Shown here one piece after another: positions 5,035 to 5,350 of a stretch of DNA of 41,030 nucleotides. The notes beneath the pieces were generated by a model. That model did not search any database and had not been told where the DNA came from. It saw nothing but the letters and a program-made list of their open reading frames with translations. A program made the translations under genes and the position numbers. The stretch covers positions 1-41,030 of the forward strand of contig PLYJ01000070.1 in assembly GCA_003151745.1 (NCBI GenBank), written 5' to 3'. Origin of the DNA: Bacteroidota bacterium (GTDB taxonomy: Bacteria > Bacteroidota > Bacteroidia > AKYH767-A > 2013-40CM-41-45). Numbering within the stretch: position 1 is the stretch's first letter; every line of letters starts with the position of its first letter.

Positions 5035-5350
5035 CTTAGAGTCTAAGATGCATATCTTAAAGTCTTGGATGCCTGTTTAAGAGAAAAGGATGCGTGTCTT
5101 AAGGTCTAAGATTGGTATCCAAGTGTCCAAGATTGGTATCTAAGAGAAAAAGATAGGTATGTAAGAGAAAAGGATACGTATCTTATGGTCTAAGATTGGT
5201 ATCTAAGAGAAAAAGATACGCATCTTAAGGTTTAAGATTGGTATGTAAAAGAAAAAGATACGCATCTAAGACAAAAAGATACGTAGCCAAGACAAAAAGA
5301 TACGTATCTAAGAGAAATATTAGCGATGAAAAAGCTCGTTTTAGTGCTAA
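5035..5350 (+). repeat. array 1: about 14 tandem 21-bp units (two unit classes) plus terminal tail atgaaaaagctcgttttagtgctaa
   Basis: Units cttaaggtctaagattggtat and ctaagagaaaaagatacgtat tile from 5035 in exact 21-nt register; tail at 5326-5350. Confidence 0.92.

What the first reader, a model, noticed from the sequence alone, without database searches (positions are those of the whole stretch)
5035..5350. Array 1: a non-coding 21-bp array with a different unit but the same period, orientation and tail as arrays 2 and 3
About 14 units in exact 21-nt register fall into two classes (cttaaggtctaagattggtat, ctaagagaaaaagatacgtat). Their junctions create the perfect palindrome AGATACGTATCT. Each of the six frames hits a stop in at least one unit class (e.g. 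ctt-aag-gtc-TAA, TAA-gag-aaa), so the 21-nt period cannot come from a heptapeptide here. A-tracts (gaaaaaga) recur every 21 or 42 bp, which predicts phased curvature. The tail atGAAAAAGCTCGTTTTAGTGCTAA matches the tails of array 2 (gaGAAAAAGCTTGTTTTTGCGTTAA) and array 3 (gtGAAAAAGCTTGTTTTTGTGTTAA). The same period and tail with different unit sequences suggests a family of elements with evolving units.
Basis: partly seen in the sequence, partly recalled or inferred. Interest (0 to 1): 0.82.

Follow-up and report, generated by a model that had tools for sequence, protein, structure and literature searches.

The report
Period-locked repeat arrays upstream of genes
The repeat next to a gene in this bacterium is one of an estimated few hundred non-coding arrays whose letters differ from array to array but whose repeat length stays at 20-22 DNA letters (two turns of the helix), and in many related bacteria such arrays sit just in front of one uncharacterised gene family, which points to an undescribed DNA-level control element.

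Summary
Array 1 is real: 14 units in exact 21-bp register (window 5034-5327), far above shuffles, stops in all six frames, and its tail is shared; all 7 tail matches in the genome end a 21-bp array. It is one case of something larger. The genome (4.6 Mb Bacteroidota MAG) holds roughly 50-60 such intergenic arrays per Mb. Units are mostly unrelated between arrays; the period is always 20 or 21. In other Bacteroidia, 31 of 35 genes of an uncharacterised ~210-aa family (helical domain + Fn3) have an array of 20.5-22-bp period 5' of the start, against 2 of 34 on the 3' side. In this genome 24 of 61 do, versus 10 of 134 other ORFs (P=2e-7). An IS3-type insertion sequence sits in or at the arrays at a fixed phase (28 of 30 distinct ends). 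Periods of 20, 41, 43 and 44 rule out heptapeptide coding as the general cause; predicted curvature does not exceed a same-period null. Best explanation (inferred): a helically phased binding array that controls the neighbouring promoter. Array 1 keeps this layout before a YceI-family gene, with no Fn3-family remnant. There are no binding or expression data; function is unproven.

The parts
5034..5327 (+). Array 1: 14 units of 21 bp, two loose classes, dyad-symmetric consensus, non-coding
5328..5350 (+). Tail of array 1, shared with six other arrays of the genome, in 21-bp register
5366..5372 (+). TGTAAGA element (first copy after the array), putative promoter element
5383..5389 (+). TGTAAGA element (second copy), putative promoter element of the YceI-family gene
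5534..6073 (+). YceI-family gene downstream of array 1 (ATG at 5534; ORF listed from 5492)
4514..4891 (-). Divergent cupredoxin-like gene on the other side of array 1
12051..12176 (+). Array 2: about 6 units of 21 bp
12172..12194 (+). Tail of array 2
11378..12028 (-). Fn3-like family gene with array 2 directly 5' of its start
24323..24616 (+). Array 3: 14 units of 21 bp
24617..24639 (+). Tail of array 3
23701..24273 (+). ECF-type sigma factor gene directly before array 3; duplicated with array and tail elsewhere in the genome
33892..34521 (+). Second Fn3-like family gene of the window, no array detected

Best explanation
Array 1 is a cis-regulatory DNA element. It belongs to a class of tandem arrays in Bacteroidia whose unit sequence is free to change but whose unit length is held at 20-22 bp, about two turns of B-DNA. 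Shown: the arrays are non-coding in general and period-locked; in other Bacteroidia genomes they lie almost only 5' of genes of one Fn3-like protein family; in this genome they also sit by other genes (here YceI), and an IS3-type element uses them as insertion sites at a fixed phase. Inferred: each unit is a site for a DNA-binding protein or dimer, and the two-turn spacing puts all copies on one face of the helix, so that a row of about 6-25 bound proteins activates or silences the adjacent promoter (in this genome apparently one with a TGTAAGA element). Also inferred: unequal exchange lengthens and homogenises arrays, so letters drift while only spacing, and often dyad symmetry, is retained.
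For: Position: 31 of 35 relatives' Fn3-family genes have a 20.5-22-bp-period array in the kilobase 5' of the start, 2 of 34 in the kilobase 3'; in this genome 24 of 61 against 10 of 134 other ORFs, P=2e-7. Random DNA of array-carrying relatives holds three candidate arrays in 308 kb. Period lock with unlike units: 20 or 21 here among lags 12-39; 21, 22, 41, 42, 43, 44 in relatives; 30 of 73 arrays of this genome have no BLAST partner and the rest fall in groups of 2-8. Paralogues with 74% identical proteins have different units. Dyad symmetry: 14 of 18 first-found arrays P<0.01 at 21 or 42 bp, 19 of 47 in the wider set. Different promoters: TGTAAGA in 13 of 24 array-bearing members (1.1 expected) against 6 of 37 others; the housekeeping TAnnTTTG in 19 of 37 members without an array but only at chance level (7 of 24) with one. 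Two TGTAAGA copies lie 38 and 55 bp after array 1.
Against: No binding protein was identified and there are no expression data. Dyad symmetry is not universal. In some relatives the array lies within about 10-60 bp of the start codon, leaving little room for a promoter between them. TGTAAGA is not enriched in relatives. In this genome 37 of 61 testable Fn3-family genes have no detectable array, and one array lies between two gene 3' ends (C137).
Confidence: 0.45

Rival explanations
1. Non-functional or selfish minisatellites: the arrays grow by slippage or unequal exchange near these genes, and a mechanistic ruler of about 21 bp in the amplification process, not selection on function, sets the period.
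For: Many arrays are near-perfect, so recently amplified; unit sequences turn over completely between paralogues; in this genome they have spread to many other genes; an IS3-type element tolerates or prefers them as landing sites.
Against: Strong 5' over 3' bias at one gene family across many genomes, 31 of 35 against 2 of 34; frequent dyad symmetry; co-occurrence with a different promoter element in this genome. Same-family genomes without the gene family have no such 21-bp arrays in the samples taken; G006 has 7-bp ones.
Confidence: 0.25
2. RNA-level element: the array is transcribed and its hairpins or repeats act as leader, sponge or processing signals.
For: Many units are inverted repeats; in some relatives the array almost reaches the start codon, so it may be in the 5' UTR.
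Against: Some arrays have hardly any self-complementarity (L253; C173); in this genome promoter-like elements lie between array and start; a period locked to two DNA helical turns has no obvious reason in RNA; no Rfam match.
Confidence: 0.12
3. Part of a mobile module: array plus Fn3-like gene, or array plus IS end, moves as a unit, and the array is its recombination or transposase-binding site.
For: IS3-type ends abut arrays in 28 of 30 distinct cases at a fixed phase; sigma-array-tail units are duplicated; the gene family is dispersed and has 78 hits in this genome.
Against: Some IS-flanking arrays match each other as reverse complements, as expected for insertion into an existing array; IS-flanking arrays mostly have different units, unlike a part of the IS itself; no recombinase was seen at the Fn3-family array loci examined.
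Confidence: 0.12
4. Heptapeptide-coding repeats (21 nt = 7 codons), array 1 being a decayed copy.
For: Arrays 2, 3 and the sigma-linked copies have an open frame through the array.
Against: Periods of 20, 41, 43 and 44; number of open frames equals the column-permuted null, 92 against 83 +/- 6; codon-position differences 41/27/46 among the sigma-linked copies show no clear coding pattern; stops in all frames of array 1.
Confidence: 0.03
5. Intrinsic DNA curvature as the selected property.
For: A-runs recur at 21/42 bp in array 1; arrays are on average more curved than array-free upstream DNA in a wedge model (70 against 43 degrees).
Against: Not above column-permuted arrays with the same period (median z -0.01; array 1 z=0.97; wedge values were entered from memory); no 10.5-bp sub-period.
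Confidence: 0.03

Closest known systems
REP/BIME repeats with REP-targeting IS elements (IS1397, ISPsy8; PMC1525189)
   Same: Intergenic palindromic repeats in many copies, used as specific targets by IS3-family elements.
   Different: REPs share a sequence within a genome; here units mostly differ from array to array, run head to tail in a fixed 20-22-bp period, and are tied to the 5' side of one gene family.
Plasmid iterons (reviewed in PMC4980987; details from general knowledge)
   Same: Direct repeats of about 17-22 bp in helical phase, each plasmid with its own unit sequence.
   Different: An estimated few hundred arrays in one genome, no Rep gene seen next to those examined, linked to an Fn3-like gene and putative promoters rather than an origin.
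Promoter-located tandem repeats of phase-variable loci (e.g. Haemophilus hmw1A, PMC8262952; details from general knowledge)
   Same: Tandem repeats upstream of a gene family, able to change copy number.
   Different: Those are short near-perfect simple repeats of one unit; here units are longer, often imperfect and different at most genes, and only the period is kept.
Contiguous operator or centromere arrays (plasmid parC, omega heptads; from general knowledge)
   Same: Many adjacent sites bound side by side, often also regulating a promoter.
   Different: One known protein and one consensus per system; here no protein is known and no consensus is shared.

Membership tests
REP/BIME repeats | shared palindromic consensus across the genome | tested here: not met
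   30 of 73 arrays have no BLAST partner, others form groups of 2-8; only weak TT/AA columns in phase
REP/BIME repeats | palindromic units | tested here: inconclusive
   14 of 18 and 19 of 47 arrays symmetric at P<0.01
REP/BIME repeats | specific target of IS elements | tested here: met
   IS3-type end followed by an array in 28 of 30 distinct cases, none of 33 controls 700 bp away
REP/BIME repeats | associated RAYT transposase | not tested
   one IS200-like Y1 transposase beside one array; no systematic test
Plasmid iterons | 17-22-bp direct repeats in helical phase | tested here: met
   periods 20-22
Plasmid iterons | adjacent Rep initiator gene and origin | tested here: not met
   neighbours examined are Fn3-family, sigma, YceI, TonB-linked, OEP, methylase and other genes; no Rep among those scanned
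Promoter-located phase-variable repeats | tandem repeat in the upstream region of a gene | tested here: met
   31 of 35 upstream against 2 of 34 downstream
Promoter-located phase-variable repeats | copy-number change alters expression | not testable with these tools
   needs strains and expression data
Heptapeptide-coding repeats | period a multiple of 3 and an open frame under selection | tested here: not met
Curved-DNA element | curvature beyond that of any 21-bp repeat | tested here: not met
   median z -0.01
Rfam structured RNAs | match to a known family | tested here: not met
   no match in the window

The most novel reading that the evidence does not exclude
A categorically new kind of bacterial DNA element: arrays under selection for repeat length (two helical turns) but not for sequence, conserved across Bacteroidia as the 5' partner of one uncharacterised protein family. 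In the strongest form each gene or array class has its own recognition sequence that co-evolves with a cognate binding protein, possibly the basic Fn3-family protein itself (median pI 9.2; N-terminal domain without a PDB fold match).
Probability: 0.35. Interest if true: 0.92.

Novelty: new variant of a known kind. Interest (0 to 1): 0.72.

Why it matters
Regulatory DNA is usually recognised by conserved letters. Here the letters are free while the spacing is conserved over many genera, a pattern that motif finders miss. It gives a direct test of whether helical phasing alone can be the selected trait of a DNA element, and a handle on an uncharacterised protein family with 78 profile hits in one genome. 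It also shows an IS3-type element that finds arrays without a shared sequence, which bears on how transposases choose palindromic repeats.

Tried and rejected
Heptapeptide coding: rejected as a general cause. Curvature: not above a same-period null; no 10.5-bp sub-period. Tail as the defining feature: only 7-8 arrays have it. Decayed Fn3-family gene near array 1: no trace by HMM in six frames. Conservation of the sigma-array unit in the family: no DNA match in 10 other genomes. ECF sigma protein in GTDB contigs: nothing. Rfam and tRNA: nothing. Pfam names only the C-terminal Fn3 domain, NCBIfam nothing of use; PHROGs hits are to tail proteins; Foldseek gave Fn3-domain matches, and the N-terminal domain alone has no match below E=1. 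Literature: no description found in the held open-access library; subscription journals and preprints were not searched.

Full report
Observation. Array 1 was re-read in the register of its tail: 14 units of 21 bp fill 5034-5327 without a break and the tail starts at 5328. Lag 21 gives 71% self-identity over 105 bp against at most 50% in 500 first-order shuffles, and no lag from 10 to 70 other than 21, 42 and 63 stands out at any of the three arrays of the window. All six frames are closed by 4-8 stops.

Tail test. All seven end a 21-bp array, and six of these arrays have about 14 units before the tail. Five of the seven (window array 3 and C262, C79, C58, C241) follow an ECF-type sigma gene, whole or in part, and are duplications of sigma, array and tail. 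The tail is therefore real but marks one subfamily.

Arrays without the tail. A sample of 20 contigs (229 kb) contains about 13 more intergenic arrays (about 10 strong) with lags 20, 21 or 42 and mostly unrelated units; scaled up this is roughly 200-270 arrays in the genome (extrapolation). A column-permutation test shows that 14 of 18 arrays have a dyad-symmetric consensus; in a wider set that includes other genomes it is 19 of 47, so symmetry is common but not required. Array 1 has one relative, an array at about C116:156-400 beside an IS end; arrays 2 and 3 group with the sigma-linked copies.

Link to a gene family. Random flanks of 80 Bacteroidota aconitase loci (1.43 Mb) held one convincing non-coding array, and it lay directly before a 220-aa gene (L142). 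Proteins of the same family lie beside array 2 and several arrays elsewhere in this genome. The family has 78 profile hits in this genome. Of 61 testable members 24 have an array within 800 bp 5' of the start, period 20 or 21 only; other ORFs of at least 200 aa: 10 of 134 (Fisher P=2e-7). A search of 396 Bacteroidia genomes found the family in 53. Of the 35 relatives' loci that could be tested, 31 have an array in the upstream kilobase with a best lag of 21, 22, 41, 42, 43 or 44, and 2 of 34 have one in the downstream kilobase. Random stretches of such genomes (308 kb) show only three candidate arrays. Sequence is not conserved: paralogues with 74% identical proteins (L166, L170) have different units, and array groups in this genome are small.

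Proteins. The family has a confidently predicted helical N-terminal domain (no PDB fold match) and a C-terminal Fn3 domain, median pI 9.2, and no other family name. Whether it binds DNA is unknown.

Promoter side. Between array and start, TGTAAGA is the most enriched 7-mer (13 of 24; 1.1 expected by shuffling; 6 of 37 in members without an array), while the Bacteroidota housekeeping element TAnnTTTG is frequent (19 of 37) only in members without arrays. Two TGTAAGA copies follow array 1 (5366, 5383) with no TAnnTTTG before the YceI start. That this is an ECF-type promoter is inference. The motif is not enriched in relatives.

IS3-type element. TTTTTTTAGGAAGGTAC and a variant lie at many contig ends. 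In 28 of 30 distinct cases an array begins directly after GGTAC (one further case weak, one without; 0 of 33 at +700 bp). The first base is A in 24 of 24, columns 4-5 of the unit are T-rich and columns 13-14 A-rich, so the phase is fixed. One copy reaches into a DDE transposase with rve domains, as in IS3 elements. Some flanking arrays match as reverse complements around the IS, as expected for insertion into an existing array. IS3-family elements that target REP palindromes are known (PMC1525189).

What the period means. Periods of 20, 41, 43 and 44 exclude codons as the general constraint, and the coding tests agree. Curvature is no higher than in column-permuted arrays of the same period (median z -0.01; wedge values entered from memory) and there is no 10.5-bp sub-period. 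What remains is one event per two helical turns, most simply one protein or dimer per unit on one face of the DNA. This step is inference; no binding protein was found.

Array 1 itself. It lies between a divergent cupredoxin gene and a YceI-family gene. No remnant of an Fn3-family gene is detectable nearby, so it is either a spread or an orphaned copy; this genome is unusual in having many arrays beside other genes.

Limits. The genome has 6.8% estimated contamination. Array calls rest on a threshold of 54-56% self-identity over 105 bp. The 35 relatives' loci are among the best profile hits, not a random draw, and some come from the same genus. The held literature is open access only.

Noticed in passing
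window 12517-12560 and 24708-24745: The two genes downstream of arrays 2 and 3 (both with a T9SS sorting domain) share a nearly identical stretch just before the start, GTGCTGAAGCAGCGAAATGAAAAATAATGTTGTCTT.
   Followed up: no
L030 about 9970-10670 (C58): An insertion of about 700 bp with an IS200-like Y1 transposase lies between the sigma gene and its array, with a 15-bp overlap of the two flanks in the query.
   Followed up: partly
L175, L178, L179, L184, L188, L192 and L174, just 5' of the gene start: Several Fn3-family members of the KPIIAIKL type share a leader AAAAGAGCGGCGGCAGCTC...AAACTCTGCCAACAAA with a small hairpin; some have a TAnnTTTG promoter element before it.
   Followed up: no
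L071-L074 (same-family genome G006): This relative has no Fn3-family hit but has intergenic tandem repeats with a 7-bp unit (e.g. TTCACTA, CCTCGTC).
   Followed up: partly
L256 downstream flank and L267 2626-2899: The two 3'-side repeats found beside Fn3-family genes in relatives (lag 40, and lags 14/21).
   Followed up: no
window 26927-27367: A coding tandem repeat of 192 bp inside the ORF 26588-28894.
   Followed up: no
window 6110-6190: Inverted repeat of CAGTCGGCAGTCTTCAGT type at the start of the ORF 6070-9192; the true start is probably further downstream.
   Followed up: no
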